The notes under the pieces were generated by a model, which was given only the letters and a program-made list of their open reading frames with translations, ran no database searches and was not told the DNA's origin. A stretch of DNA of 64,000 bases, from the NCBI RefSeq assembly GCF_030158565.1, contig NZ_JAOASQ010000046.1, positions 1 to 64,000 of the forward strand. The letters run 5' to 3'. This stretch comes from Limnohabitans sp. GTDB lineage: Bacteria > Pseudomonadota > Gammaproteobacteria > Burkholderiales > Burkholderiaceae_C. Of the stretch, positions 3,716 through 48,633 are shown piece by piece. The translations under genes and the position numbers were made by a program. Every line of letters begins with the position of its first letter. Position 1 is the stretch's first letter.

Positions 3716-5809
3716 TTAGGCTTTGGGCGGTGTGGTGCTGGCCTGCTCAACGAGTGCCGCAGGCAAAGTGAAGCGAAACACGGTGCCCTTGGTCGTCTGC
3801 GCCTCGAACTCCAGATGCCCACCGTGTTGTTCAACCACGGTACGGCAAAGGCTCAGGCCCAGGCCCATGCCCTCGGCTTTGGTTGTGAAAAAGGGTGTGA
3901 AAAGTTGCTCGGCCACTTCGGGTGCAATGCCCGTGCCCACATCGGTGACAGCGAATTCCACCCAACTTTGTTCGGCATTGGATGCTCCTCGCCGGGCTTG
4001 CAAGAGCAACACGCGCTCTGTGCATTCGGGCCGGTCCATGGCCTGCATGCCGTTGCGCGCCAGGTTCAGCAGCACTTGCTCAACCATGGTGCGGTCACAC
4101 CACACGGCAGGCAGGCGCGGCTCAATGCGGGTCACCACGTTCACCTGCAGTTTGCGGGCCTGCAGATTGACCAAAGGCAAGATGGCATCCATCAGCGCAT
4201 GGGGTGTCACGGCTTCGCGGGCCTGGTCGCGCCGCCGCACAAAGTCGTGTACGCTGTTGATCACGCGGCCCGCGCGGCCGGCCTGTTCGGCAATGCGGCG
4301 CAGCGCCATGTGCACATCGTCTTGCGATTGCGCCAAGGCATCCGGGTCTTTGAGCAAATTGAGCGATCCGTTGGCATAACTGGCAATGGCGGCCAGTGGC
4401 TGGTTCAGTTCATGGCTGAGCAGCGAAGCCATCTCGCCCACCGTGGCCAGACGGGCGGTGGCCTGCAAACGCTCCTGGCTGGCGCGTGAGACTTCTTCAA
4501 TGCGGCGCTGCTCGCTGATGTCGATGACGGCCCCCATCCAGCCGCTTTGCTGGCCTTGGGTGTTGATCAGCGGTGCTTCGATGATCAGCACTGGAAAGCG
4601 CGTGCCATCTTGGCGCATGAACACCGATTCGAAACCTTCGCGCGGCGGGGCATTGCCCGCCAGTCGGATCGCTTGGCGTTGTTTGTATTCGTCCACCATT
4701 TCGGGTGGCCAGTAAGGCATGGGGGCGTTGTGTCCAATGAGCGCACTGGCCGGTAGGCCCACCATGTCGCAAAAAGCCGGGTTGACGTAGGTGATGAGGC
4801 CCTCCAAATCCCGCGCGCGCAAGCCGGTGACCAAGGAGTCTTCCATGGCTTTGCGAAAAGCCAGCGCATCGGCCAGGGCGTGTTCGGCTTTGAGGCGTCT
4901 GCGCGAGTCCTTGACCAAAAGCACCATCACCGTGATCAGTGCAATCGACATGGCGGTGACCAAGGCGGTCAGCACGTTGGGGAACAAATCGGGTTCGCCC
5001 CTGCGGCTGTCCATGCGCAGCACCAGGGTGTTGCCTGGCAAGTCCACCAATTGCTGCGCTGTGAACAGCCGCAGGCCGCGTCGCTGGGTGCCGGCAATGG
5101 CCAGGCGTGTGCCGTCGGCTTCGGTGAAAGACACTTCGTTGCGTCGGCCCAGTGTGTTGCCCAAACGCTCGGCCAGCATGGCTTGCAGACCATAGGTCAC
5201 GATGGTGTAACCCACCAGCTCGCCTGCCAGTGTTTGCGGCAGGCACAGCTCCATGACCTCCATGCCCAAGCCGTCGGTTTGGGGCACATAGTAGCTGGTG
5301 GAATAGGCGGGACCGTTGAGCCGCCGTGCCCGCTGGCATGCCTGAATGGCTTCTGCGAACGTGTCGATTCGCGGCGCGCGTTCAAAGACCGGTGCGCGCA
5401 GGGGGGACTCCACAAATGCCAGGCTATTGAGCCGCGCATCGCGCCACTCCAGGCGCACCCAGTCGCGGTTGTCGCGCAATAAAGTGAGGGCCTCTGCGGA
5501 CCAACTTTTGAGCGTGGTGTGCTGTGCCTGCAGTGCTTGCAAGGTCTGCACATCCAGAGACAGGCCGCTGCGGATGTCGTTGACCGCGTCGGTGGTGTCG
5601 CGCTCCAGTTCGGCTTGCAGTTGGCTGATTTCGTAGCGTCCAGCAAGCCACACCAGCGTGACCAGAACAGCCACCACCAGTGCCATGAGGGCGGCCCACA
5701 AGGAACGCCGTCCGGAGACCTTGAACAGCCCCGCGTTTTGCGCCAAGCGCCACGCACGCAGGTTTGGCAAGAGGGTTTGAAAAATCTGCAAAGATCGCAG
5801 CGATTTCAT
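3716..5809 (-). CDS. sensor histidine kinase with periplasmic domain and PAS
   Basis: A 697-residue membrane kinase of the DctB/TtrS/FixL type. Visible parts are a first membrane helix (about 37-58), a periplasmic sensor region (about 60-275), a second helix (277-300), a PAS domain (about 318-433), a HisKA domain with the phosphorylated His466 in LLSHELNQPLAAI, and a HATPase domain with NLARNGMQAM, DVGTGIAP and GMGLGLSLC. The ATG at 5809 starts 8 bases after the yhdP stop; in-frame ATGs at 5833 and 5848 inside yhdP are alternatives, and none has a strong ribosome binding site. It is followed by its response regulator. The signal sensed cannot be read from the sequence. Confidence 0.9.
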   Translation of the reverse strand: MKSLRSLQIFQTLLPNLRAWRLAQNAGLFKVSGRRSLWAALMALVVAVLVTLVWLAGRYEISQLQAELERDTTDAVNDIRSGLSLDVQTLQALQAQHTTLKSWSAEALTLLRDNRDWVRLEWRDARLNSLAFVESPLRAPVFERAPRIDTFAEAIQACQRARRLNGPAYSTSYYVPQTDGLGMEVMELCLPQTLAGELVGYTIVTYGLQAMLAERLGNTLGRRNEVSFTEADGTRLAIAGTQRRGLRLFTAQQLVDLPGNTLVLRMDSRRGEPDLFPNVLTALVTAMSIALITVMVLLVKDSRRRLKAEHALADALAFRKAMEDSLVTGLRARDLEGLITYVNPAFCDMVGLPASALIGHNAPMPYWPPEMVDEYKQRQAIRLAGNAPPREGFESVFMRQDGTRFPVLIIEAPLINTQGQQSGWMGAVIDISEQRRIEEVSRASQERLQATARLATVGEMASLLSHELNQPLAAIASYANGSLNLLKDPDALAQSQDDVHMALRRIAEQAGRAGRVINSVHDFVRRRDQAREAVTPHALMDAILPLVNLQARKLQVNVVTRIEPRLPAVWCDRTMVEQVLLNLARNGMQAMDRPECTERVLLLQARRGASNAEQSWVEFAVTDVGTGIAPEVAEQLFTPFFTTKAEGMGLGLSLCRTVVEQHGGHLEFEAQTTKGTVFRFTLPAALVEQASTTPPKA

Positions 5810-5816
5810 CGTCTGT

Positions 5817-8800
5817 TTACTTTGTTGTCGCATCGGTTTTGTCTGCATCGCGCGACACGCGTTTGACGCGTGGCGCAGCCCAGTTGCCATCGATCAGGAA
5901 CTCCTGTGTCGAAGCACGGCTCAAAGGTGATTGCAAGTAAAGCTGTGCCAAAAAGGTGGTCAGGCCAACCAGCGGATTGACAGCGATGCCGGCCACCAAA
6001 GACGCTGTGCCGGTGTCCACCTCGGGCAAAATCACCACGCGCAATTGCTGTGTTTCCTTGGAAAGGTCTGCCCAGCCATCCAGTTGCACCACAGCATTGA
6101 TGCCCTTGATTTGCAAGTTGCGCGTGGTGGCAATGCCATGGTCGATGCTGACATGTCCTGTCACAGAATCGAAGGCAAAACCTTCGTAGAACACGTCACG
6201 AAAATCCAGCAAAAAGCGGCGCGGCAAGGCTTGCAAGCTGAGCACGCCCAGCAGTTTGGCAGCACCTGCGTCGGCTTTGAGGAATTGACCGCGGCCCATC
6301 TTCACGTCGAACTGGCCGCTCATGCTGGGGTGGTGCAGTGTCAGCGGCGAACCGTTCCAACTGATGTGGCCTTCGAGATCGCCACTGCCGTCGCGCAGGG
6401 CGCCAGGGGTGCCCAAGCGTGTCAGCAAGTCCCCAGCATCGTTGACGGTCAAGCGAAAATTCATTTCGGTTTTGCGCAAGTTGCTGCCTTCGCTGGCCGT
6501 CAGCCACCGGCCGGTGCTTCGCAGTGTGGCCTCCGGCAAGATGATGTTGAATTTGTTGAGCCGCCATTCGCCGGCGGGTTTGCCTCTCGGTATGGCCAGT
6601 GCACTGTTGAGTGCTTCGATTTCGATGCGTCCCAGTTTCAGGCCACGCAGTTCCAGTTGCTCGATCACGATGTCCAGCGCGGGCAGCTGGGTTGGTGGTG
6701 CATCCAACAGGCTTTCGACATCGGCTGCGCTGGATGGGGGCAGGTTCAGGCGTGCGAGGCGGGCATACAAATGGCCTGGCTGGCCACCGGTGGATTGGCG
6801 AAACTCGAGGTGCCCACTCAATTCGCGGGCATCCACGTTGGCGCGCCATGTCAAGCCATCGCGCGAACCACCGGCGACCACCTCGTGAAGGGTTCGGCCT
6901 TCAGCGGTGATGGTGTTGGCTTGCAAACCAATGCGAGTTGGCAAGTAGCTTTGCATGGCGCTGTTGTCCTTGCCAGACGCCTCTGCATTCTGGCTGGCGG
7001 GCCACAAGGCCTGCCACTCGCCGACAGAGAATTGGTCGATCGTGATGGTGGCGGCAACACCGGCTTCGGGCATGGGCGGCAAGGCGCCGTTGGCTTTGCC
7101 CAAACTCATGCTGCCGCGCAAGACGCGAGGCGTTTGACCGGACAGGTCGCGCACATACTGAACCGAGGCCACGCGGCCCAAATCAATTTGCAGGCGGTCT
7201 TGCAAATGGCTGCCGGTGTTTTGGACGCGGCTGCGTATGCTCAGCGGCATGGTCGATGCCGCTGACTTGTTCAGTGGCGCGGGCAACTTCAGTCCCAGGC
7301 CTTCCAGTTGACTTTGAATGAACAGCTCGGGTTGGCCCTGACGCCACCCCAGATTGGCGGTGTAAGGCGTGCTGCCACTGAGGTGTTTGGCCAAGTCATC
7401 AAGGGGTTGGAATTCGCGGGCTTGACGCAAGCCTTCGGCGCTGATTTCGCCTTGTGCACGCAGCTGCAATGTGGGTTCGCTGCTGTTGCTGGTGGGCCGC
7501 AAACCGCCTTCTATCCGGATCGGGCCGCCCAGAAAACGTGCTTGAACGGCATTCAGGCTAAAACCAGATTCTGAAAATTGAATGGTCCCTTGGGCTTTTT
7601 CAAAAACCGGTAACACCGTGCTGGCCCGCAAATCGTTGCTGTTCAAGGCAAGGGCGCCTTGCACTTTGGTGTTGTGCGTCGCCAGCAAGGGGATGCTCAG
7701 TTTGAGACGGGTCTGTACGGCGCCCGTGGCTTGCATGTCATGCAAGGCCGAGCCCAGGAGCTTGTCCAGGGCTGACTTTTGAATCAGGCCGAGCACTTGC
7801 GCGGCAGGGCCTTTTTGTTCTGCAGAGACTTCCAGTGTGGCTTGCTCGGCCATGTTGGCAATTTGGGCCTGGATCCTGCTCAAAGGCATGCCCGTTTTTG
7901 CCTCGCCAGCGCGGGCCGAGGCATCGCTGAGTTTCATGCCCAATCGGTCAAACACCAGTTGCCCCGAGAGTTCGTGCAGACGTGGCCAGGGCAGGCTGTT
8001 GCTGGGCATCAAAGATGCGGGCACATAGTCCAGTTCCACACCGTTCAGACGTCCGGCGAATCGGAATTCACCTTCTTTGGGGTTGGCAAAGGGCAAACGA
8101 TCGAGGTCGCCTTTGATGTTGACTTGGACCCCGCTGTAGCTGCCCTTGATCACGGCATCGCGCACATACTGGCGCACCGATGCGGGCAAAGACATGGGCA
8201 GGTAACGGTGCACACGCGCTGCATTGGCCTGGCTGACCTGGCCTTGCAACTCGATCATGCCCAAGCCTTTCGCACGGCCATGCCATTGACCTTGCCATTG
8301 GCCATTCAGATCGGCGTTGTTCAGTTGCACAGACCATTGCGGCACGTCCCACAGGCCATCCTTGTGTTGCCAACGTGCCTGGGCATGCAGACTGTTGATG
8401 GGCACGACGGGCTCTTCCAGAATGCCTGGCAACATGAGGGCAGCGCCTGCGCCCATGTCAAGCTGCATTTGACCGCCGGCCTGTGTCATTTTGACTTGGA
8501 CCTGAGCCCCTTGCACCCCTGGCCAACTTGGCGAGTGCTCCTGTGTTGCGCTGGGTGCGCGTGCTGGCAGGTTCAAATTTCTAACGTTCGCTTGGGCTTC
8601 ATAGCTTTGCGGATTTTCCCAGTCACCCACCCACGCCAATTGCAGTGCGTCCACTTGGCCCATCACGTCGGCTGTTTGCAGTTGTTGGTGCAATGCATCG
8701 GGCAGCGGCAAGCGCAAAGACAGATCGCGCAGCGCTTGCAAATCGAGGTGGTCGCCCTGGATGCGGCCTTGAGCGGGTTTTCGTGCCTGAAGTTGTTCGT

Positions 8801-38175: not shown

Positions 38176-38295
38176 CGTCATCAGGACAGATCACAAGATC
38201 AAATGAAGCCGGACAGTGACGGCCTGACACTAAAATCAGCTCAAGCGCCCGGATATACACCTCAAAAAAGCCAGCATCTACAACAGGAGACAGCC

Positions 38296-38970
38296 ATGCG
38301 AATTCTCATTGCCGAAGACGATCAGGTGCTTGCCGATGGCTTGTTGCGCACCCTGCGCAACGCGGGTGCGGCGGTGGACCATGTGGCCAGTGGCAGCGAG
38401 GCCGATGCGGCGTTGATGACCAACAATGAATTTGACTTGTTGATCCTGGACCTGGGCTTGCCCCGCATGCACGGTCTTGAGGTGCTCAAGCGCTTGCGCT
38501 CGCGTGGCTCCACATTGCCGGTGCTGATTTTGACCGCCGCCGACAGCGTCGAAGAACGGGTCAAAGGCCTGGACCTGGGCGCAGACGACTACATGGCCAA
38601 GCCTTTCAGCCTGCAAGAACTCGAAGCGCGTGTGCGCGCCCTGACCCGCCGCGGCATGGGCGGCGCCACTTCCCAGATCAAGCACGGGCCACTGATCTAT
38701 GACCAGTCCGGTCGCGTCGCCACCATCGACGGCAAGATGGTTGAACTCTCCGCCCGTGAACTGGGCTTGCTCGAAGTGCTGCTTCAGCGTGCGGGTCGTC
38801 TGGTCAGCAAAGACCAGTTGGTTGAACGCCTGTGCGAATGGGGCGAAGAGGTCAGCAACAACGCGATCGAGGTGTACATCCACCGCCTGCGCAAGAAAAT
38901 CGAAAAAGGCCCGATCCGCATCGCCACGGTGCGCGGTCTGGGTTATTGCCTCGAAAAAATCCCCGGCTGA
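38296..38970 (+). CDS. OmpR/TctD-type response regulator
   Basis: A 224-residue regulator: receiver domain (1-115) with Asp52 in LLILDLGLP, Thr in LILTAAD and Lys in YMAKPFS, then a winged-helix domain ending in YIHRLRKKIEKGPIRIATVRGLGY. AGGAGA lies 7 bases before the ATG. It precedes its presumed kinase by 49 bp. The TctD/QseB type of receiver suggests a carboxylate or quorum-type cue, not resolved here. Confidence 0.93.
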   Translation: MRILIAEDDQVLADGLLRTLRNAGAAVDHVASGSEADAALMTNNEFDLLILDLGLPRMHGLEVLKRLRSRGSTLPVLILTAADSVEERVKGLDLGADDYMAKPFSLQELEARVRALTRRGMGGATSQIKHGPLIYDQSGRVATIDGKMVELSARELGLLEVLLQRAGRLVSKDQLVERLCEWGEEVSNNAIEVYIHRLRKKIEKGPIRIATVRGLGYCLEKIPG

Positions 38971-39019
38971 TCGTGTCGGGCTTGCACACCCGCACCTTGG
39001 CCTGCGTGCCCACCGAGCC

Positions 39020-40480
39020 ATGAAGTCCAAGGGTTGGAGCGTCAAGTTTTTCAAACGTGAACAGCGTTCGCTGTTCGGGGAGATCCTCGACTGGATGTTG
39101 ACCCCGCTGCTGCTGCTGTGGCCCATCAGCCTGGCCTTGACCTGGCTGGTGGCGCAGGGCCTGGCCAACAAGCCCTTTGACCGTGCCATGGTCTACAACG
39201 TGCAGGCCTTGGCGCAACAGGTCAAATTGGGGCCCGACAAAAAAGTCCAGTTCAACCTGCCTCAGCCAGCCAGCGAATTGCTGCGCGCCGATGAAACAGA
39301 CCTCGTTTATTACCAAGTGCGTGGGGCCAACAACGAGCACTTGAGCGGTGACCGCGATGTGCCCATGCCGCCCGATGAAGAGGACAAAGGCAGCAGCTAC
39401 GAAGTGCACATCCGTGACGACGAAATGCGCGGCATGGAAGTGCGCGTGGCCTACACCTGGATACGGCTGGATGCCGATGGTAAGCGGCCTGCGCTGGTGC
39501 AAGTGGCCGAGACCCGTGAAAAACGCTCCGTGCTGGCCGCAGAGATCATCAAGGGGGTGATGCTGCCCCAGTTTGCCTTGCTGCCCTTGGCGGTGCTCTT
39601 GGTGTGGCTGGCGCTGGTGCGCGGCATCAAGCCTTTGTCTGAGCTGGAAGAGCGCATCCGTGCCCGCAAGCCCGACGACTTGAGCCCTTTGGACGACAAG
39701 GCGGTGCCCATGGAAGTGGCGCCACTGGTGCTGTCGGTGAATGACCTGCTTGAACGGCTGAAAGACTCCATCGTCACGCAAAAGCGTTTTTTGGCCGATG
39801 CGGCGCACCAGCTCAAGACACCGCTGGCAGGTTTGCGCATGCAGGCCGACCTGGCGCAACGCTCAGGCTCCAGCGAAGAAGACCTCAAAAAATCGCTGCA
39901 GCAAATTGGCCGCGCCAGCGTGCAAGCCACCCACACCGTGAACCAGTTGCTGTCTTTGGCGCGGGCCGAGGGTGGGGGGACCAGCGTGCCCCAGCAAGCC
40001 TGCGACATGGTGCGCTTGGTCAGCGATGTGCTGCAAGACAGCTTGCCCCGCGCCATGGACAAAGGCCTGGACCTGGGCTACGAGGGCGTGGACGCCGATA
40101 CCCCTGGCGTGAAAGTGACGGGCAACCCCATCTTGCTCAAGGAGATGGTGCGCAACCTGGTCGAAAACGCCATCCACTACACGCCTTCCACGGCGCAGCG
40201 GCCAGGCGTGATCACGGTGCGCGTGTTGGTCGACCCCTACAGCAAGGCGCTGGTCTTGCAGGTCGAAGACAACGGCCCGGGCATTCCGGTGCCCGAGCGC
40301 GATCTGGTGTTTCAGCCGTTTTACAGGGCCTTGGGCACCAACGTGGATGGCTCAGGCCTGGGCCTGCCCATCGTCAAGGAAATTGCGCAGCAGCACGGCG
40401 CCACGGTCAGCATTGCCCCGACGTTTGAGAACCAGACGCCGCCTGGTGCGTGCTTTACGCTGCGCTTCAAAGTCTTTTGA
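39020..40480 (+). CDS. TctE-like sensor histidine kinase
   Basis: A 486-residue membrane kinase. The first helix (about 25-45), a periplasmic 2CSK-N/TctE-type sensor domain (about 50-175), the second helix (182-201), a HAMP-like linker, HisKA with His263 in DAAHQLKTPLAGLRMQADLA, and HATPase with NLVENAIHYTP, DNGPGIPVPE and GSGLGLPIVKEIA are visible. Kinases of this group sense tricarboxylates or operate in general envelope control. Confidence 0.92.
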   Translation: MKSKGWSVKFFKREQRSLFGEILDWMLTPLLLLWPISLALTWLVAQGLANKPFDRAMVYNVQALAQQVKLGPDKKVQFNLPQPASELLRADETDLVYYQVRGANNEHLSGDRDVPMPPDEEDKGSSYEVHIRDDEMRGMEVRVAYTWIRLDADGKRPALVQVAETREKRSVLAAEIIKGVMLPQFALLPLAVLLVWLALVRGIKPLSELEERIRARKPDDLSPLDDKAVPMEVAPLVLSVNDLLERLKDSIVTQKRFLADAAHQLKTPLAGLRMQADLAQRSGSSEEDLKKSLQQIGRASVQATHTVNQLLSLARAEGGGTSVPQQACDMVRLVSDVLQDSLPRAMDKGLDLGYEGVDADTPGVKVTGNPILLKEMVRNLVENAIHYTPSTAQRPGVITVRVLVDPYSKALVLQVEDNGPGIPVPERDLVFQPFYRALGTNVDGSGLGLPIVKEIAQQHGATVSIAPTFENQTPPGACFTLRFKVF

Positions 40481-41182: not shown

Positions 41183-41548
41183 TTAATTGGATGCGGGCTT
41201 GGCCTGCGGTGCCGTGGCAGGCGCTGTGCTCACCGGCGCAGACGCGGCACCAGAAGGTGCGACAGCCGCGGGCGTGGGTTTGGCGGGCAAGACTTCGGGC
41301 GCTTTGCCAGCAGGCGCGGCAGCCGCTTCAGAAGCTGGTGCAGCGGGCGAAGGCGAAGACGCAGGTGTGGGTGCAGTCTGGCCTGGCAGCGTGAACTGCA
41401 AGGCCTCGGGCTTGATTTGTTGCTGCAAGCGCTCTGGCTCGCGTTGCACATTGGGGCCCCAGCCCCAGCGGGCAAAGGCGTCCCACTGCCAGGCCAGTGT
41501 GATGACGTTGAGCAGCAGCAACAGGGCTATCCACCAGCGGATTTTCAT
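41183..41548 (-). CDS. hypothetical membrane-anchored Ala/Pro-rich protein
   Basis: A 121-residue protein with one N-terminal membrane helix (about 5-20) followed by an extended Ala/Pro/Ser-rich tail of low complexity, which would reach into the periplasm. The family is not recognised. Its ATG overlaps the birA stop (ATGA), so it is probably translated with birA; a GST gene follows. Similar small proteins beside birA occur in related Burkholderiales genomes, as far as I recall, but no function is known. Confidence 0.75.
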   Translation of the reverse strand: MKIRWWIALLLLLNVITLAWQWDAFARWGWGPNVQREPERLQQQIKPEALQFTLPGQTAPTPASSPSPAAPASEAAAAPAGKAPEVLPAKPTPAAVAPSGAASAPVSTAPATAPQAKPASN

Positions 41549-42318
41549 GGTTGGTCCTCGGCAAAGGGGCGCACGCTGACTTCGGAACTGTGGATGTCCA
41601 CCACGCCAGCATCGGTCTGCAATCGTAGCGCACCGCTGGCGCTGACACCCCGCGAAGTGCCCTGCAACCCATCGCTGGTGTGTACGCGCCGACCTTTGAG
41701 CACGTCACGCGCTTCAAAGCGTGCTTGCAGGGGGGCAAAGCCGGTGGTCTCAAAAGCCAAAATGGTCTGGATCAAGGGCGCCGCAACGCGCGCCAGTGCC
41801 GCAGCGGCAGTCGCGTCAGGCCAGCATTCGGTCAAGGCTGCAGGCGGGGTGTTCAGGCCATCGGCCGGGCGCGGACGGATGTTCAGGCCCACACCGATCA
41901 CCACCTGGCTGCGCCCCCCCATGCTGGCGGCTTCCACCAGAATGCCGCCCAGTTTTCGTTCTTGCATCCACAAATCGTTGGGCCATTTCAAGCGCACATC
42001 GGGGTGCAGGCTTTCGGCCAGACTCAGACCCACCGCCAAGGACAGGCCTGACCAGTCTTGGGGGGCGATGGGCAGGCTCAGCGAGAAGGTCAGTGAATCA
42101 CCCGGCTGGCTTTGCCACACGCGGCCCATGCGGCCACGGCCTGCGGTCTGGCGCTCGGCCACCATCAGCGTGGGCTCATGTTGGCCTGCGCGGGCGCGGC
42201 GCATGAGTTCGCTGTTGCTGGAGTCGATCTCGGGCAGGATATCGACGGTGAAGTCGGGCAGCCAGGGAAAGACTTGCTCCCAGATGGCTTCAGCGGGCCA
42301 GGCGGTGGGGGTCATCAT
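41545..42318 (-). CDS. birA: biotin--[acetyl-CoA-carboxylase] ligase
   Basis: A 257-residue class I biotin protein ligase. The biotinyl-AMP site is seen in TAGRGRMGRVW and KWPNDLW...KLGGILVE, and a C-terminal SH3-like domain ends the protein. It lacks the N-terminal helix-turn-helix of E. coli BirA, so it should biotinylate AccB without acting as a repressor. It starts with two successive ATG codons (42318, 42315). Confidence 0.93.
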   Translation of the reverse strand: MMTPTAWPAEAIWEQVFPWLPDFTVDILPEIDSSNSELMRRARAGQHEPTLMVAERQTAGRGRMGRVWQSQPGDSLTFSLSLPIAPQDWSGLSLAVGLSLAESLHPDVRLKWPNDLWMQERKLGGILVEAASMGGRSQVVIGVGLNIRPRPADGLNTPPAALTECWPDATAAAALARVAAPLIQTILAFETTGFAPLQARFEARDVLKGRRVHTSDGLQGTSRGVSASGALRLQTDAGVVDIHSSEVSVRPFAEDQP

Positions 42319-42372
42319 GAGAAAAATGCCAAGCAGGGTGTCATTGCGAAAAGGGCGCTCACTTCAGGGCTG

Positions 42373-42466
42373 ACGGCATCGCGAGCGAAGCGTGGCGATC
42401 CAGCGTGTTTGCGGTTTTGCGTGGAGTCTGGATGGCCACGTCGCTTCGCTCCTCGCCATGACGGCT
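42373..42466. repeat. REP/BIME-like intergenic palindrome
   Basis: About 90 bp form an imperfect inverted repeat: GCGAGCGAAGCGTGGCGATC (42381-42400) on the left pairs with GATGGCCACGTCGCTTCGCT and CTCGC on the right (42431-42455). The outer parts TGACGGC and ATGACGGC extend it. Such TCATGGCGAG-type palindromes recur in many proteobacterial genomes between converging or divergent genes. It could act as a terminator in both directions for birA and SET transcripts. Confidence 0.7.
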
Positions 42467-42480
42467 TGTGAGGCGCAATG

Positions 42481-43125
42481 CTATTGAGAGGCCTTCTTGA
42501 CCTTTTTGGCCGACTTCTTCTTGTCCTTGTCCTTCGGTTTGGCATCGGCCTTCACTTTGGACTTTGGCTTGGCCTCCGACTTGGCCTTGTCTTTGGATTT
42601 GCCTTTGGCCTTCTTTTGGCCTGGAATCTTGGGCGTGTCGGCGCGGTCTTTGGGCGACAGCAGCGTGCCCCGGCAGTTCTTGGCGCCGCACCAGCAGGGG
42701 TACTCGGCCTTGAGTTTCTTGGTGTAGGGCTCGTCGATGATCAGGCCGTAGTCGTAGTTCAGCTCTTCACCGGCGTGGATGTTGCGCAGCGCCTTGATGA
42801 AGATGCGCTCGTTCTCTTCGTCGGCCTCGCAGTTGGGGTCGCAGCTGTGGTTGATCCAGCGCGAAGAGTTGCCGCCGTGCAGCGCGTCGATCACCTTGTC
42901 CTCGTTCACATGAAAGTAGAAGGTGTGGTTCGGGTCTTTGGGGTCGTGCGGGTGGCGGTCTTGCGCCTCGTCCCAGCTGATGATCTCGCCCACGTATTCA
43001 ATCAGCGTCTCGCCCTCGGCGAGGTCTTGCAGGGCAAACACGCCTTTGCCATGCACACCGGAGCGGCGAACCTGGATGCGTCGCTTGGATGTCGAACCGG
43101 AAGAAGAAACAGGGGATTTGGCCAC
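42481..43125 (-). CDS. SET domain protein-lysine methyltransferase
   Basis: About 214 residues. The SET domain (about 15-130) has RRSGVHGKGVFA, the SAM-binding NHSCDPNC and the catalytic ELNYDYG motif; a short post-SET zinc motif CWCGAKNCRGTLL follows (about 144-157). The last about 45 residues are almost only Lys, Ala, Ser, Asp and Pro, like histone H1 tails. SET enzymes are mainly eukaryotic; bacterial ones are known in Chlamydia, Legionella and some Burkholderiales, where histone-like proteins can be the substrate. The GTG at 43125 is preferred over a TTG at 43134. It is divergent from the topoisomerase-SWIB gene. Confidence 0.92.
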   Translation of the reverse strand: MAKSPVSSSGSTSKRRIQVRRSGVHGKGVFALQDLAEGETLIEYVGEIISWDEAQDRHPHDPKDPNHTFYFHVNEDKVIDALHGGNSSRWINHSCDPNCEADEENERIFIKALRNIHAGEELNYDYGLIIDEPYTKKLKAEYPCWCGAKNCRGTLLSPKDRADTPKIPGQKKAKGKSKDKAKSEAKPKSKVKADAKPKDKDKKKSAKKVKKASQ

Positions 43126-43153
43126 GGTGTTCAAAAATTTGTTATGGTGAATT

Positions 43154-43217
43154 CATGTGGGCGTGCGCGTGAGCGCGCCCAGGCGTGCATGTGTGCGAGC
43201 GCGCGAGCGCACGCGAG
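43154..43217. other. alternating purine-pyrimidine tract (Z-DNA-prone)
   Basis: The short spacer between the SET and topoisomerase genes holds about 60 bases rich in CG, GC, TG and CA steps (for example GCGTGCGCGTGAGCGCGC and GTGTGCGAGCGCGCGAGCGC). Such alternation favours left-handed DNA under negative supercoiling. It lies 17 bp before the topoisomerase ATG. Confidence 0.5.
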
Positions 43218-43234
43218 ACAAGGGGATTGTAGAC

Positions 43235-46150
43235 ATGAAAACTTTGGTGATTGCAGAGAAGCCTTCGGTGGCTCAAGACATCGTTCGGGCCCTGACCCCT
43301 GTGGCGGGCAAGTTCGAGAAACACGATGACCATTTCGAGAGCGACACTTATGTGGTGACGAGCGCGGTGGGCCACCTGGTGGAGATCCAGGCCCCCGAGC
43401 AATACGACGTGAAACGCGGCAAGTGGAGCTTTGCCAACCTGCCCGTGATCCCGCCGCACTTTGACTTGAAGCCGGTGGACAAAACCAAGAGCCGTTTGAG
43501 CGCCGTGGTCAAGCAGGCCAAGCGCAAGGATGTGACCGCCCTGATTAACGCCTGTGACGCGGGCCGCGAGGGTGAGCTGATCTTCCGCTTGATTGAGCAG
43601 TACGCAGGTGGCGCCAAACCGCTGAACAAACCCGTCAAGCGTTTGTGGCTGCAGTCCATGACGCCGCAAGCGATCCGCGATGGCTTTGACAGCCTGCGCA
43701 GCGAACAACAAATGCAGGGCCTGGCCGACGCCGCTCGCAGCCGGTCTGAAGCCGACTGGCTGGTGGGCATCAACGGCACCCGCGCCATGACCGCGTTCAA
43801 CTCGCGCGACGGTGGTTTCTTTTTGACCACCGTGGGCCGGGTGCAAACGCCCACGCTGGCCGTGGTGGTCGAGCGCGAAGAGCAAATCCGCAAGTTCATG
43901 AGCCGCGACTATTGGGAAATCCACGCCGAGTTCGCCGCTGCCGCAGGCACCTACCCCGGCAAGTGGTTCGACCCGAAGTGGAAGAAAGAAGAAGACGCCG
44001 AAAAGAAAGCCGACCGCAAATGGACCGCCGCTGAAGCGCAAGCCATCGTCGACGCGGTGCGCGGCCAGACGGCCACCGTGACCGAAGAGGCCACGCCCAC
44101 CACGCAAGCCAGCCCCGGCCTGTTTGACTTGACCAGCCTGCAGCGCGAAGCCAACGGCAAGTTCGGCTTCTCGGCCAAGACCACGTTGGCCCTGGCCCAA
44201 AGCCTGTACGAGCGCCACAAGGCCCTGACCTACCCGCGTACCGACTCGCGCCACCTGCCCGAAGACTACGTGCCCGTGGCCAAACAAACCTTCGAGATGC
44301 TGGCCGACAGCGGCATGCGCCACCTGGCCCCGCACGCGCTCACCGCGCTCAACAACAACTACGTGCGCAAGATCCCGCGCGTGTTCGACAACAAAAAGGT
44401 GTCGGACCACTTCGCCATCATCCCCACGCTGCAAGCGCCCAGCGGCTTGTCCGAGGCCGAGCAAAAGCTCTATGACCTGGTGGTGCGCCGCTTCATGGCG
44501 GTGTTCTTCCCCAGCGCCGAATACCAGGTGACCACCCGCATCAGCGTGGCCGCTGGCCACAGCTTCAAGACCGTGGGCAAGGTGCTGGTCAAGCCGGGTT
44601 GGCTTGCCATCTACGGCAAGGAAGCGGCCAATGAGGTGGAAGACGCCAAAGACGGCGACAAAGGCCAGAACCTGGTGCCGGTGCAGCCGGGCGAGCAGGT
44701 CGGTGTCGAGTCAGTCGAAGCCAAGGGCTTGAAAACCCGCCCACCGGCACGCTATTCAGAAGCCACGCTGCTGGGCGCCATGGAAGGCGCAGGCAAGATG
44801 GTGGACGACGACGAACTGCGCGAAGCCATGCAGGAAAAAGGCCTGGGCACGCCAGCCACCCGCGCCGCCATCATCGAAGGCCTGATCAACGAGAAGTACA
44901 TGCTGCGCGAAGGCCGCGAGATGATCCCGACGGCCAAGGCCTTCCAGCTCATGACGCTGCTGCGCGGCCTGCAGGTGGAAGAACTCTCCAAGCCCGAGCT
45001 GACCGGCGAGTGGGAATACAAGCTGGCTCAAATGGAACAAGGCAAGTTGAGCCGCGCCACCTTCATGGCCGAGATCGCGGCCATGACCGAGCACATCGTC
45101 AAGAAGGCCAAAGAATACGACCGCGACACCGTGCCCGGTGACTACGCGACGCTCACCACCCCCTGCCCCAACTGCGGCGGCGTGGTCAAAGAGAACTACC
45201 GCAGATATACATGCACGGGCGCACAAGGTGCTGCTGAAGGCTGCGGCTTCTCGTTTGGCAAATCGCCCGCTGGTCGCACCTTCGAGCCTGCCGAGGTCGA
45301 GCAGTTCATGCGCGACAAGAAGATTGGCCCGCTGGACGGCTTCCGCTCCAAAGCCGGTTGGCCCTTCGTGGCCGAGATGGCGCTCAAGTACAACGAAGAA
45401 GAAAAAAACTGGAAGCTCGAATTCGACTTCGGAGACGACAAGAAGAACGAAGAAAGCGGCGAGATCGTCGAGTTCACCGACGAGTCGCTGGGCGCCTGCC
45501 CCAAGTGTGGCAGCGCTGTGCACGAGCACGGCAGCAACTACGTGTGCAGCAAAGCCGTGCCCACCCACGAGCAACCCACGCCCAGCTGCGACTTCAAAAC
45601 CGGCAAGATCATCTTGCAGCAACCGGTGGAGCGCGAACAGGTCGTCAAATTGCTGAGCACTGGCAAGACCGATTTGCTCGACAAGTTCGTGAGCAACCGC
45701 ACGCGCCGCAGCTTCAAGGCCATGCTGGCCTGGAACCCCGAAGAGGGCAAAGTGGCTTTTGAATTTGAGCAGCGCGAAGGCGGCAAGAAATACCCGCCGC
45801 GCAAGACCGCTGCCAAAAAGACACCTTTTGGCAAGCCAGCCGCCAAGAAGACCGCCGTCAAAACCCCCGCTGCCAGAAAAGCCGCCAAGACCGCCGCGCC
45901 CAAAGCGCCGCGCAAAGCCGCTGTCGGCACGCTCAAGCCCAGCGCCTCATTGGCCGCCGTGATCGGGGACGGCACTTATGCCCGCACCGAAGTGGTCAAG
46001 AAGATCTGGGACTACATCAAGGCCAATGGCCTGCAAGACCCGGCAGACAAGCGCTCCATCAAAGCCGATGGCAAGCTGCAAGCGGTGTTTGGCAAAGACC
46101 AAGCCACCATGTTTGAGTTGGCGGGGATCATTGGCAAGCATTTGAGCTGA
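43235..46150 (+). CDS. topB: DNA topoisomerase III with Lys/Ala linker and SWIB domain
   Basis: A 971-residue type IA topoisomerase. Order: TOPRIM (MKTLVIAEKPSVAQD; CDAGREGELIFRLI), the core with the active-site tyrosine in LTYPRTDSR (about residue 333), two C-terminal zinc-binding modules (CPNCGG... and CPKCGS...), a Lys/Ala/Pro-rich histone-H1-like linker (848-897) and a SWIB/MDM2-type domain (898-971: KKIWDYIKANGLQDP, KADGKLQAVFG). The ATG at 43235 is used; a longer GTG start would translate the spacer tract into an Arg-rich leader. E. coli TopB has 653 residues and lacks the tail. SWIB-topoisomerase fusions are also known from Chlamydia. It should resolve DNA entanglements; the tail likely adds chromatin or protein contacts. 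Confidence 0.94.
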   Translation: MKTLVIAEKPSVAQDIVRALTPVAGKFEKHDDHFESDTYVVTSAVGHLVEIQAPEQYDVKRGKWSFANLPVIPPHFDLKPVDKTKSRLSAVVKQAKRKDVTALINACDAGREGELIFRLIEQYAGGAKPLNKPVKRLWLQSMTPQAIRDGFDSLRSEQQMQGLADAARSRSEADWLVGINGTRAMTAFNSRDGGFFLTTVGRVQTPTLAVVVEREEQIRKFMSRDYWEIHAEFAAAAGTYPGKWFDPKWKKEEDAEKKADRKWTAAEAQAIVDAVRGQTATVTEEATPTTQASPGLFDLTSLQREANGKFGFSAKTTLALAQSLYERHKALTYPRTDSRHLPEDYVPVAKQTFEMLADSGMRHLAPHALTALNNNYVRKIPRVFDNKKVSDHFAIIPTLQAPSGLSEAEQKLYDLVVRRFMAVFFPSAEYQVTTRISVAAGHSFKTVGKVLVKPGWLAIYGKEAANEVEDAKDGDKGQNLVPVQPGEQVGVESVEAKGLKTRPPARYSEATLLGAMEGAGKMVDDDELREAMQEKGLGTPATRAAIIEGLINEKYMLREGREMIPTAKAFQLMTLLRGLQVEELSKPELTGEWEYKLAQMEQGKLSRATFMAEIAAMTEHIVKKAKEYDRDTVPGDYATLTTPCPNCGGVVKENYRRYTCTGAQGAAEGCGFSFGKSPAGRTFEPAEVEQFMRDKKIGPLDGFRSKAGWPFVAEMALKYNEEEKNWKLEFDFGDDKKNEESGEIVEFTDESLGACPKCGSAVHEHGSNYVCSKAVPTHEQPTPSCDFKTGKIILQQPVEREQVVKLLSTGKTDLLDKFVSNRTRRSFKAMLAWNPEEGKVAFEFEQREGGKKYPPRKTAAKKTPFGKPAAKKTAVKTPAARKAAKTAAPKAPRKAAVGTLKPSASLAAVIGDGTYARTEVVKKIWDYIKANGLQDPADKRSIKADGKLQAVFGKDQATMFELAGIIGKHLS

Positions 46151-46193
46151 CTTTTGCGCTCGCCCTGAGCCGTCGACGTTTTTCGGCGGCATT

Positions 46194-46222
46194 GAAAACG
46201 CCACGCTTGCCGTGGCGTTTTC
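46194..46222 (+). terminator. rho-independent terminator after topB
   Basis: AAAACGCCACG and CGTGGCGTTTT form an 11-bp perfect stem around CTTGC. It starts 44 bp after the stop codon. Because the stem carries A-run and T-run on either side, it can act in both directions. Confidence 0.88.
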
Positions 46223-46434
46223 ATGTGTACGTACTTTGCGGACCCCGCCCTAATTGTTTGTGGACGATGGTTTTGAGAGTTTGTTGTTTGCAGCTGGTGA
46301 TTTTCATTCAAATGTCATTTTTATAGATTAAAAAATGTAATAAATGTTGAAAAATAATACCTAAAAATTAAATATATCTTGATACTTTGCAAAAATAGCT
46401 GCCTGCCAATCAACCATCGTAAGGGGTTATTTTT
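46223..46434 (+). promoter_or_regulatory. AT-rich upstream region of VCBS adhesin gene
   Basis: About 210 bp between the terminator and the adhesin ATG. The last 120 bp are very AT-rich (TAAAAAATGTAATAAATG and similar), as seen in promoters silenced by H-NS-like proteins. AAGGGG lies 9 bases before the ATG at 46435. No exact promoter is called. Confidence 0.4.
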
Positions 46435-48633
46435 ATGCTCAACGTCAACACCATCAACGCTAAGAACAGTCAAAAATTTGAAGTTAAGCCAGGTCAGCCG
46501 ACCAGCATCAAGGTAGAACCAAACACGCGCTTTGAGCTGGCCGATCCCACCACCGGAAAGGCTCCCGTCAAGATCAAGGCGCGACGTGCTGGAGACAATC
46601 TCGAAATCGTGATGGATGAGAAAGCGCTGATTGAAGAAGAGGCGGCCAGCAACGCGCAGAGCCCGGACTTGGTGCTCGAAAATTATTACAAGCAAGAAGA
46701 TGTCAGCTTGTTTGCCGGCACCGGCGAAGCTGCCGTCAGCTATGTGCCTGTCGATGGCGCTGCTGCGGGTTCTTATGCAGCAATGAGCACGTCCGCCACC
46801 ACTGGTGCGGCACTGGGTGTTTTGCCTTTGCTGAATCCCTGGGTAGGCGCAGCAGTGCTTGGAACGGGTGCCTTGGCAGCGGCAGGCAGTGGTAAATCCA
46901 ATCAGGCACCTGTTGCCCAAGATGCAGCAGCCAAGGTGGATGAAAACAAATTGCTCAGTGACAAAGTTCCCGCAGCCATAGATTCGGATGGAACGGTCGC
47001 AAGTTATCGTTTGGTGAGTGATGTTGCTGCTGGCAAACTGACCTTTAATGCAGACGGTTCGTACAGTTTCGATGCCAACAAAGACTTTGATGGACTCGCA
47101 GCAGGTCAAACACGGACTGTTAGCTTTACCTACAGCGCTGTGGACAATGCGGGTGGTGTCAGTGAGGCCAAAACGGTCAGCATCACTGTGATCGGGGCGA
47201 ATGATGCCCCTGTGGCGATTGCAACAAACAAGGCGATCAATGAAGGTGTTGCAGCAGCAGGCTCTGTGACAGCCTCAGATGCCGATTCGGGTGCCAAGTT
47301 GACTTATGCATTGACTGAAACAGCGCCTGCTGGCTTGTCTTTCTACAAAGACGGGACTTACATGTTTGATGCAAACAACGTTGCGTACAACAGCCTCAAA
47401 GCGGGTGAATTAAAAACCATCGCCGTGGAATTCAAGGCCAACGACGGGACGGTGGACTCGGCAGAGCAGACCTTGACGATTGTCGTCAAAGGCGTGAATG
47501 ACAAGGCGGTGATCGCTGGCACGTCTACAGGCCAAGTGACAGAAGATGCACCCAGCAATGTGCTGACCGGAAAATTGACGGTGACGGATGTGGACACGGG
47601 TGAGGCGGCATTCAAGCCCGTGGCGCAAGCACAGCCGGTGGGCAAATATGGTCACTTCACTTTCGATGCACCAGTCGGTGAATGGTCATACACCTTGGAC
47701 AATACAAAAGCACAGGCGCTTTATCAAGATCAAGCATTTGTTGAAAGCATGACGGTCTCCACGGTAGACGGCACGACCAGTGTGATATCGGCGACGGTCA
47801 AGGGCGTGAACGATGTGCCCGTTTTCCAAATTCAAACAGGTGATCGGGTCGATGTAACGGGTTTGACCGAAGACCCACTGAATGCGGTGAAGACCTCGGG
47901 TAGCGTGACGGTGAGCGACCCAGATGTTGAAAGCGGAACGGTATACGCGGTCACGGGTTTGAGCATCAGTGGTGGTTACACCCCTTTCAAAGATCCAGCA
48001 AATCTGACAGAGTCTCAGAAGGCAACATATGACCGTCTGTTGAACATGCTCTCGTTGGACAGTACGGCGGTCAAAAATGGCTCGGGGAAATTGGACTGGA
48101 ATTTTGATTCGGTTTCAAAAGAATCGTTGGACATGATTCCAGAGGGTGAAACCATGGTGCTTGAGTACACGGTCACTCAGAAGGACCCGCATGGTGAGTC
48201 TGCAACGCAAACGGTGACCATTGAGATCACCGGTACCAATGATGCCCCCAAGGTTCAACTTCGCGCAGGAGATTCAGCGGAAGGGAAGATTGTTGATTTG
48301 ACTAAAAATGTCACGGGCTCCCTCACGATCATTGACGAAGATGGAGTTGGGGCATATTTCAAAACAGTGAGTTTGGATGGCAATGAAATCACTAATACAG
48401 CGACACTTAATATTTTGAAAAGTCTGTTTGTGTATGACCCAACCACATCAACTTTTGAAACCAAGAATGAAGATGGGAATTACGATTGGATATTCAAAAC
48501 CAGCGATGCCGTGAGCAGTGGGTTGTCCTCTTTTGCGGGAGCTGGAGATCATAAGCTCACCTATAACATGAACTTTCGCGATGATCATTTGATTGCAACA
48601 AGCCAAGAGATCAACATTCTTTTCACTGTCTGA
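46435..48633 (+). CDS. VCBS/cadherin-like repeat protein (short adhesin)
   Basis: A 732-residue protein. The N-terminal about 110 residues resemble the cytoplasm-facing prefix of BapA/LapA-type adhesins; a small Gly/Ala-rich hydrophobic segment follows (LGVLPLLNPWVGAAVLGTGALAAAG, about 128-152). Then come four to five about 100-residue Ig/cadherin-like VCBS repeats, each ending in TVxGxNDxP (VIGANDAPVA, VVKGVNDKAV, VKGVNDVPVF, ITGTNDAPKV), and a final partial unit. There is no Sec signal, so type I secretion is expected, but no RTX nonapeptides or transporter genes are present nearby. It is short for its class. DNA composition is less GC-rich than neighbours. Confidence 0.82.
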   Translation: MLNVNTINAKNSQKFEVKPGQPTSIKVEPNTRFELADPTTGKAPVKIKARRAGDNLEIVMDEKALIEEEAASNAQSPDLVLENYYKQEDVSLFAGTGEAAVSYVPVDGAAAGSYAAMSTSATTGAALGVLPLLNPWVGAAVLGTGALAAAGSGKSNQAPVAQDAAAKVDENKLLSDKVPAAIDSDGTVASYRLVSDVAAGKLTFNADGSYSFDANKDFDGLAAGQTRTVSFTYSAVDNAGGVSEAKTVSITVIGANDAPVAIATNKAINEGVAAAGSVTASDADSGAKLTYALTETAPAGLSFYKDGTYMFDANNVAYNSLKAGELKTIAVEFKANDGTVDSAEQTLTIVVKGVNDKAVIAGTSTGQVTEDAPSNVLTGKLTVTDVDTGEAAFKPVAQAQPVGKYGHFTFDAPVGEWSYTLDNTKAQALYQDQAFVESMTVSTVDGTTSVISATVKGVNDVPVFQIQTGDRVDVTGLTEDPLNAVKTSGSVTVSDPDVESGTVYAVTGLSISGGYTPFKDPANLTESQKATYDRLLNMLSLDSTAVKNGSGKLDWNFDSVSKESLDMIPEGETMVLEYTVTQKDPHGESATQTVTIEITGTNDAPKVQLRAGDSAEGKIVDLTKNVTGSLTIIDEDGVGAYFKTVSLDGNEITNTATLNILKSLFVYDPTTSTFETKNEDGNYDWIFKTSDAVSSGLSSFAGAGDHKLTYNMNFRDDHLIATSQEINILFTV

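What the first reader, a model, noticed from the sequence alone, without database searches (positions are those of the whole stretch)
42481..46150. Chromatin-like pair: SET methyltransferase divergent from topoisomerase III-SWIB
A SET-domain lysine methyltransferase and a topoisomerase with a SWIB domain stand back to back with a 109-bp spacer. Both proteins end in Lys/Ala/Pro-rich histone-H1-like stretches, so the topoisomerase linker (or the SET protein's own tail) is an attractive methylation substrate. SWIB, SET and H1-like modules are eukaryotic-type chromatin parts; the closest bacterial parallel is Chlamydia, which has SWIB-topoisomerase, a SET protein and Hc1. The paired genetic arrangement with matching tails in a free-living betaproteobacterium may be an undescribed DNA-topology control module. 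The link between the two proteins is inference.
Basis: partly seen in the sequence, partly recalled or inferred. Interest (0 to 1): 0.8.

Follow-up and report, generated by a model that had tools for sequence, protein, structure and literature searches.

The report
Topoisomerase–SET gene pair, Z-DNA-prone spacer
A topoisomerase gene and a SET-type protein methyltransferase gene stand back to back in nearly every sampled member of one bacterial family, and the short DNA between them has a conserved pattern that could flip into left-handed Z-DNA, which may let the cell sense DNA twisting.

Summary
Both genes are real: a SET methyltransferase (42481-43125, -) and a topoisomerase III-SWIB fusion (43235-46150, +), 109 bp apart. 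Linkage is conserved: 77 of 80 named Comamonadaceae loci and 137 of 141 SET-bearing genomes among 150 of the family. The methylation-module reading is weakened. The pair belongs to a larger block (birA follows SET in 78 of 78 testable loci). Adjacency also holds without SWIB. TopB tails are as Lys-rich without SET; in f6, where SET touches topB, they have no lysine. SET tails vary. SET orthologues elsewhere follow gyrB in two lineages, or sit beside metabolic and other genes. The unexpected result is the spacer: an alternating purine-pyrimidine, G+C-rich tract, the strongest of its locus in 67 of 76 cases. Its variable columns are 12 transitions against 2 transversions (63 against 180 at fourfold sites). 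It stands before topB in 5 of 7 SET-less relatives, and in 1 of 47 loci outside the family. I propose a family-specific, supercoiling-sensitive control region of topB, shared with SET. SET's substrate is unknown.

The parts
42481..43125 (-). SET-domain protein lysine methyltransferase, 214 aa from GTG 43125 (TTG 43134 less likely), post-SET Cys motif, Lys-rich C-terminal tail of variable length in relatives
   Evidence: Pfam SET 4.1e-25; closest solved sequences MLL1/KMT2A SET, E 3.2e-27; start from indel pattern
43126..43234 (.). divergent spacer of 109 bp shared by SET and topB
   Evidence: direct reading, alignment of 18 spacers
43161..43215 (.). alternating purine-pyrimidine G+C-rich tract (Z-DNA-prone), 55 bp with 10 breaks in this copy
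   Evidence: score 33.5, reached by none of 1059 other windows of the 64 kb; second of 52 sites of score 20 or more in 704,645 sampled bases of this genome; transversions avoided in relatives
43235..46150 (+). topB: DNA topoisomerase III with C-terminal SWIB domain, 971 aa
45776..45925 (+). Lys/Ala/Pro-rich linker (aa 848-897) of TopB
   Evidence: translation; weak Hc2-like match at aa 851-908, 23 bits against a cut-off of 135
45932..46144 (+). SWIB domain of TopB
   Evidence: PF02201 E 3.8e-26 in the genome search
41545..42318 (-). birA, biotin-protein ligase, downstream of SET on the same strand; part of the conserved block
   Evidence: PF03099/PF02237; follows SET in 78 of 78 testable loci
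38203..40480 (+). response regulator and sensor kinase (named by reading the sequence, no family search), on the strand opposite to SET and birA; part of the conserved block
   Evidence: ORFs; found near SET in 65 of 69 and 68 of 72 testable loci

Best explanation
In Comamonadaceae, topB and an endogenous SET lysine methyltransferase are transcribed divergently from one short spacer. Shown: the pair is family-wide, independent of SWIB, and part of a larger syntenic block; the spacer holds an alternating purine-pyrimidine tract whose changes mostly keep the alternation, and that tract is found before topB also in most SET-less relatives examined. Inferred: under negative supercoiling, including that left behind by the two diverging polymerases, the tract flips toward Z-DNA and absorbs torsion, so that topB (and SET-birA on the other side) responds to supercoiling, a feedback for an enzyme that removes negative supercoils. 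The Lys/Ala tail and SWIB domain probably help TopB hold DNA; the SWIB extension looks like a fusion of the small Lys/Ala-rich SWIB protein to TopB. SET methylates lysines of some endogenous protein; no evidence here singles out TopB.
For: Adjacency 77 of 80 and 137 of 141. Spacer outranks every other 120-bp window of its locus in 67 of 76; 73 of 76 beat mononucleotide shuffles at p<0.01 (5 of the 80 loci dropped for missing topB start or a gap over 400 bp). Tract within 200 bp of topB in 25 of 31 SWIB-type and 7 of 10 non-SWIB SET+ loci; in 4 more it lies further up a longer spacer. Present in 5 of 7 SET-less loci; 0 of 5 f32, 0 of 4 f6 and 1 of 38 other topB loci of the order (those 38 loci are 30 genomes). 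Variable tract columns 12 transition, 2 transversion, against 63 and 180 at fourfold sites of topB (Fisher p 1e-5; two-letter columns only 12:1 against 63:63, p 0.003). SET found in 119 of 126 sampled genera of the family, which argues for an internal role.
Against: Z-form in vivo and any effect on transcription are untested; the score is my own simple one, not a B-Z energy calculation. The tract is partly self-complementary, and 2 of 8 RNA folds are clearly better than dinucleotide shuffles (z from 0.41 to -2.96), so a hairpin or operator is possible. No tract in L350-L352, L334 or L339; L294 and L296 are weak. In 9 of 76 loci another window scores as high or higher. The tract does not follow SET in other families (0 of 34 in f32, Polynucleobacter-like and f6; 2 of 22 elsewhere in the order). 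In this genome a GTGCG-type repeat scores higher. The topB|SET adjacency is no better conserved than SET-birA. No consensus sigma-70 promoter was found in 42300-46500.
Confidence: 0.4

Rival explanations
1. Dedicated methylation module: SET methylates the Lys-rich linker of TopB-SWIB and so tunes its DNA binding or activity.
For: Family-wide divergent pairing; Lys-rich linker in TopB; cpnSET is reported to bind and methylate Hc1 (Murata 2007, as told in passages of PMC3980110).
Against: TopB tails equally Lys-rich without SET (median K fraction 0.236 in 18 SET- against 0.217 in 23 SET+ loci of the order); f6 TopB tails have no lysine though SET is adjacent (4 of 4); adjacency without SWIB; two SET-less genomes keep topB-SWIB. 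NUE of C. trachomatis is reported not to methylate Hc1/Hc2 (passage of PMC6426960).
Confidence: 0.12
2. Plain synteny: topB, SET, birA, the two-component genes and recA were brought together once in the family's ancestor and stay together without any functional tie; the spacer tract is a mutational curiosity.
For: birA 78 of 78, kinase 68 of 72, regulator 65 of 69, recA 58 of 63 testable loci keep the block; SET orthologues elsewhere lie beside unrelated genes; in six SET-less loci topB is next to birA.
Against: Two further topoisomerase juxtapositions: gyrB-SET in 6 of 6 Polynucleobacter-like genomes and SET next to topB in 4 of 4 f6 genomes, with gyrB upstream in the 3 that could be read, in different parts of the SET tree (branch 100/98); selection-like pattern in the spacer tract.
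Confidence: 0.33
3. The spacer tract is an RNA hairpin (5' leader) or a palindromic protein operator rather than a Z-DNA element. (Not exclusive of the other readings.)
For: Several spacers fold into strong hairpins; two folds at z -2.58 and -2.96; alternating GC/CA tracts contain short palindromes.
Against: Six of 8 folds lie between z 0.41 and -1.73; what stays between genera is the alternation, not a fixed word.
Confidence: 0.2
4. SET is a host-directed nuclear effector like LegAS4/BtSET.
For: BtSET of B. thailandensis and a Bordetella relative are described as effectors (passages of PMC3980110); weak match to the LegAS4 model (41.5 bits).
Against: Far under that model's cut-off of 550 bits and over the SET part only; found in 141 of 150 genomes of a family that I know as mostly environmental (habitat recalled). 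Secretion signals and secretion systems were not examined.
Confidence: 0.04

Closest known systems
DNA topoisomerase III, SWIB type (NCBIfam NF011313 / PRK14724)
   Same: Residues 1-971 match positions 2-988 of the 988-position model, above cut-off
   Different: No difference found; it is a member
SET-domain lysine methyltransferases (KMT2/MLL1-type SET; bacterial NUE, cpnSET, BtSET)
   Same: SET domain by sequence, catalytic and post-SET motifs
   Different: Short stand-alone protein whose gene neighbours topB; substrate unknown. NUE, cpnSET and BtSET sequences were not compared here
Chlamydial SET + SWIB + topoisomerase set (suggested chromatin-remodelling complex, passages of PMC6426960)
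   Same: The same three domain types in one genome, with a small SWIB protein and a topoisomerase-SWIB fusion
   Different: The chlamydial fusion is topoisomerase I, here topoisomerase III; here SET is physically paired with topB; in the betaproteobacterial order SET, SWIB and the fusion also occur apart
Z-DNA-prone alternating (RY) tracts (survey PMC4060949, theory PMC3024258, passages seen)
   Same: Alternating purine-pyrimidine runs of the kind counted there
   Different: Kept at one orthologous topoisomerase promoter region across a family; RY patterns are said there to be under-represented in betaproteobacteria

Membership tests
TopB-SWIB (NF011313) | score above curated cut-off over the whole protein | tested here: met
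   1957.6 bits against 1088
TopB-SWIB (NF011313) | topoisomerase III activity | not testable with these tools
   YPRTDS, recalled as the active-site tyrosine motif, is in the translation
SET lysine methyltransferase | SET domain with NHSCxPN, Tyr of YDY and post-SET Cys motif | tested here: met
   by pattern, NHSCxPN in 69 of 80 and post-SET motif in 65 of 80 Comamonadaceae relatives
SET lysine methyltransferase | methylates lysine | not testable with these tools
   no assay
Topoisomerase I/SWI fusion (NF004966, chlamydial type) | score above cut-off | tested here: not met
   181.6 bits against 868
LegAS4/AnkI effector (NF043024) | score above cut-off over the 439-position model | tested here: not met
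   41.5 bits against 550, positions 33-140 only
Hc2 histone-like protein (NF038052) | score above cut-off | tested here: not met
   TopB linker 23 bits against 135
Z-DNA-forming element | long alternating purine-pyrimidine G+C-rich run beyond background | tested here: met
   top of its locus in 67 of 76
Z-DNA-forming element | B-Z transition at physiological supercoiling | not testable with these tools
   no energy model or probing here

The most novel reading that the evidence does not exclude
A supercoiling sensor: the topB|SET spacer flips to Z-DNA when the chromosome is over-twisted and thereby sets the level of a topoisomerase and, on the other side, of a lysine methyltransferase that modifies nucleoid or replication proteins; elsewhere in the order the same methyltransferase family stands behind gyrB, so SET would be a recurrent partner of the topology machinery.
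Probability: 0.25. Interest if true: 0.8.

Novelty: new variant of a known kind. Interest (0 to 1): 0.5.

Why it matters
The bacterial SET enzymes in the reviews whose passages I saw are discussed mostly as effectors on host chromatin; a SET gene found in 141 of 150 genomes of one family, beside a topoisomerase gene, gives a place to ask what SET does inside bacteria. The conserved alternating tract makes an old question, whether Z-DNA has a regulatory job in bacteria, testable at one defined and naturally replicated promoter region.

Tried and rejected
SET-SWIB co-occurrence as a sign of a common complex: strong at first (32 of 38 SET+ against 42 of 162 SET- genomes in the order; SET+ here means E below 1e-30, leaving 8 weaker matches as SET-), but among the 94 genomes with a large-type TopB (29 of 35 against 30 of 59, Fisher p 0.002) it fades once genome size is held (stratified permutation p 0.13). 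Outside the order none of the 7 SET+ genomes had SWIB. Rejected as evidence.

TopB tail as co-evolving substrate: rejected on tail comparison. One SET-less genus (L333, L338) has Lys-free, Arg-rich tails, but all six other SET-less loci of the family have 8-12 lysines, and f6 goes the other way. The f1 medians were not used, because the SWIB domain was not cut off in most f1 rows.

Topoisomerase neighbours by chance: a rough binomial gives 1e-5 to 1e-4 for three of 15-20 contexts, but it is post hoc; in one f30 genome (G118, L151) topB and gyrB are convergent neighbours without SET, so the f6 case may be one old neighbourhood. Treated as suggestive only.

Greedy ORF clustering mixed antisense frames and was used only to find marker genes; the labels recA, dnaA, dnaN, dprA and of the two-component genes are my reading of the sequences, not a family search. 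A sigma-70 scan found 0 promoter-like sites in 42300-46500. No structure prediction was run. The number of SWIB-type TopBs by match end (63) is a lower bound, because the match often stops in the linker.

Literature: no paper held 'topoisomerase III' together with 'SWIB domain'. In the lists (listings and abstract starts; longer result sets were shown only in part) I saw nothing on this pair or spacer. Only that library was searched.
Full report
What is there. The window lies on contig C46 of its genome; its closest named SET relative is from Limnohabitans lacus (90%), so I take it as Comamonadaceae. The minus strand carries a SET-domain protein (42481-43125 from GTG; Pfam SET 4.1e-25) and the plus strand topB, 43235-46150, a topoisomerase III ending in a Lys/Ala/Pro-rich linker and a SWIB domain. 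NCBI already names the fusion (NF011313, 1957.6 bits, cut-off 1088).

Is the pair conserved? Yes. Of the 80 best SET relatives in named genomes, 77 have topB immediately upstream and divergent; in the other three the contig begins 40-219 bp before the SET match. These 80 are the best of 554 confirmed relatives, so they favour the closest kin. In 150 genomes of the family (at least 90% complete), 141 have SET at E 1e-30 or better; 137 of these have topB divergent on the same contig. Of those, 134 have a gap of 48-834 bp, median 166, between the matched parts, and in three topB was listed only in part, so the gap reads 1.5-1.7 kb. The four others: G602 (both genes near contig ends), G616 (topB found but its place not printed), G642 (no topB match at 1e-150) and one apparent true separation (G667). 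Adjacency does not need SWIB: 59 of 63 genomes with a full-length SWIB-type match have it (three of the four misses are the partly listed ones, the fourth G602), and 75 of 84 without such a match (the nine misses are eight SET-less genomes and G667). Ten non-SWIB TopB proteins with adjacent SET were read directly (L343-L352).

Is the pair special? Less than it seems. Control genes in the 80 loci, where the contig is long enough: birA follows SET in 78 of 78, the sensor kinase is near in 68 of 72, the regulator in 65 of 69, recA in 58 of 63, topB in 76 of 76. So topB|SET is one edge of a block topB|SET-birA-...-kinase-regulator-recA. Nine of 150 genomes lack SET. I looked at eight of them: in six topB is next to birA (about 180-240 bp between matches), and in the other two the contig ends at that side. 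That looks like clean loss of SET. Two of the six, of one genus, keep topB-SWIB (L334, L339).

Where else does SET sit? In family f32, 58 of 80 genomes have SET (loci kept for the best 30). Of those 30 loci, 24 have SET convergent with a sensor kinase 28-39% identical to this block's one and no topB within the 3.4-kb locus, while all 6 of the 1.7-2.1 Mb genus (Polynucleobacter-like by size; my inference) have SET just behind gyrB (GyrB by Pfam in L173). In f6, 4 of 4 genomes have SET tail-to-tail with topB, and gyrB upstream in the 3 whose contig reaches that far. The SET tree (87 rows, only 145 columns, many open forks, midpoint root) puts f6 across a 100/98 branch from f1 and f32, so the two gyrB-SET arrangements look independent. 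Elsewhere I scanned 18 neighbouring ORFs: 14 gave a Pfam family (among them DHBP synthase, ilvD, malonyl-CoA decarboxylase, NadA, ketopantoate hydroxymethyltransferase, a helicase, a peptidase), none a topoisomerase. Three topoisomerase contexts are unlikely by chance, but the count is post hoc.

Do the tails match? Not as a conserved trait. SET tails after the post-SET motif range from 7 residues up (Comamonadaceae median 32 in 63 complete cases; 8 in all 6 Polynucleobacter-like; 7-37 in f6) (the longest values may include read-through frames). TopB tails are Lys-rich with or without SET: median K fraction 0.217 in 23 SET+ and 0.236 in 18 SET- loci of the order (one truncated row dropped). 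The four f6 tails are 4-8 residues with no lysine. The small SWIB protein of this genome (C74, L001) has the same kind of Lys/Ala arm plus SWIB as the TopB end, so a fusion would explain the TopB end without SET; this is inferred from likeness, no tree was made. In the order sample fused SWIB was seen only in f1, in all 5 f1 genomes.

SET and SWIB co-occur in the order (32 of 38 against 42 of 162), but not clearly beyond genome size (p 0.13), and not in the rest of the class.

The spacer. Aligning 18 spacers showed a G+C-rich tract of alternating purines and pyrimidines. With a simple score of my own (CG/GC +2, CA/TG/AC/GT +1.2, AT/TA -0.5, break -4) 76 spacers (the window and 75 of the 80 loci; five dropped for a missing topB start or a gap over 400 bp) have median 41, against a 99.9th percentile of 30 in 17,540 background windows of 120 bp. 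The spacer is top of its locus in 67 of 76, and 73 of 76 beat 200 mononucleotide shuffles at p<0.01. Some spacers are longer than 120 bp, which helps them a little; in L068 and L072 the score is unremarkable (14 and 15). In this window it beats all 1059 other windows; in 704,645 of about 3.05 million bases of this genome only a GTGCG-type repeat scores higher. Runs without any break reach 40-42 bp in other genera (L084, L031). Between genera the words change but the alternation stays. In 17 closely related spacers, variable tract columns are 12 transitions and 2 transversions, against 63 and 180 at fourfold sites of topB in the same loci (p 1e-5; two-letter columns only, 12:1 against 63:63, p 0.003). 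With the more distant L046 added, pairwise differences in the tract are 581 transitions to 118 transversions, in the flanks 167 to 238, at fourfold sites 5007 to 6958 (pairs are not independent). That is the pattern expected if alternation is kept.

Where the tract belongs. Within 200 bp of topB (score at least 25): 25 of 31 SWIB-type and 7 of 10 non-SWIB SET+ loci of the family, 5 of 7 SET-less loci (an eighth lacks the topB start), 0 of 5 in f32, 0 of 4 in f6, 1 of 38 elsewhere in the order (the 38 loci are 30 genomes, eight of them held twice), and 0 of 1 in G667, where SET and topB are apart. In four of the six SWIB-type misses the tract lies further up a longer spacer; two are weak; L350-L352, L334 and L339 have none there. 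It is not a SET feature: 0 of 34 upstream of SET in f32, Polynucleobacter-like and f6, 2 of 22 elsewhere in the order. So it goes with the topB spacer of this family.

Mechanism. Alternating runs favour Z-DNA under negative supercoiling, and transcription leaves negative supercoils behind the polymerase (passages of PMC3024258). Two diverging polymerases would load this spacer. I infer that the tract buffers or senses torsion and adjusts topB, with SET-birA on the other side. An RNA leader hairpin or operator is not excluded: 8 folds gave z from 0.41 to -2.96. No consensus sigma-70 site was found there.

Literature. PMC6426960 (passages) already suggests that SET, SWIB and topoisomerase form a chromatin-remodelling complex in Chlamydiae and notes discordant results for Hc1 methylation. 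PMC3980110 (passages) lists cpnSET, BtSET and others. PMC12445093 (two passages and the start of the abstract) treats the chlamydial TopA-SWIB. PMC4060949 (passages) reports alternating patterns under-represented in betaproteobacteria under a realistic null. In the listings I saw no paper on this pair or its spacer.

Verdict. Observation confirmed; the methylation-module interpretation is only partly supported; the spacer tract is the part worth following.

Noticed in passing
L173:2620-5614, L165:3846-9344: gyrB is directly followed by SET (1 bp between the ORFs in L173); in f6 the order is gyrB-SET, then topB on the other strand.
   Followed up: partly
L004 (G000:C69:16307-16612): Second SET gene in this genome, 61% identical over its match to the first, 11-residue tail, no topoisomerase seen in the 3.3-kb locus; a second SET match was listed in 4 of the 150 family genomes.
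   Followed up: partly
L001 (G000:C74:3647-3862): Small SWIB protein with a Lys/Ala/Pro-rich arm; a SWIB domain, fused or free, was found in 150 of 150 family genomes.
   Followed up: partly
L333, L338: SET-less genus whose TopB tail has no lysine and is Arg-rich.
   Followed up: partly
L205: The Polynucleobacter-like SET proteins read NHSCKPC where the others read NHSCxPN (0 of 6 match the pattern).
   Followed up: no
L025: Record titled Akkermansia muciniphila MAG carries the Comamonadaceae block at 84% SET identity: probably a mis-binned contig.
   Followed up: no
46435-48633: VCBS/cadherin-repeat protein downstream of topB.
   Followed up: no
L368:15636-15725: Array of a GTGCG-like unit, the highest-scoring stretch in this genome's sample.
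   Followed up: no
L333, L336, L338: A second strong alternating tract in these SET-less loci (rest-of-locus maxima 38.3, 31.5 and 40.8).
   Followed up: no
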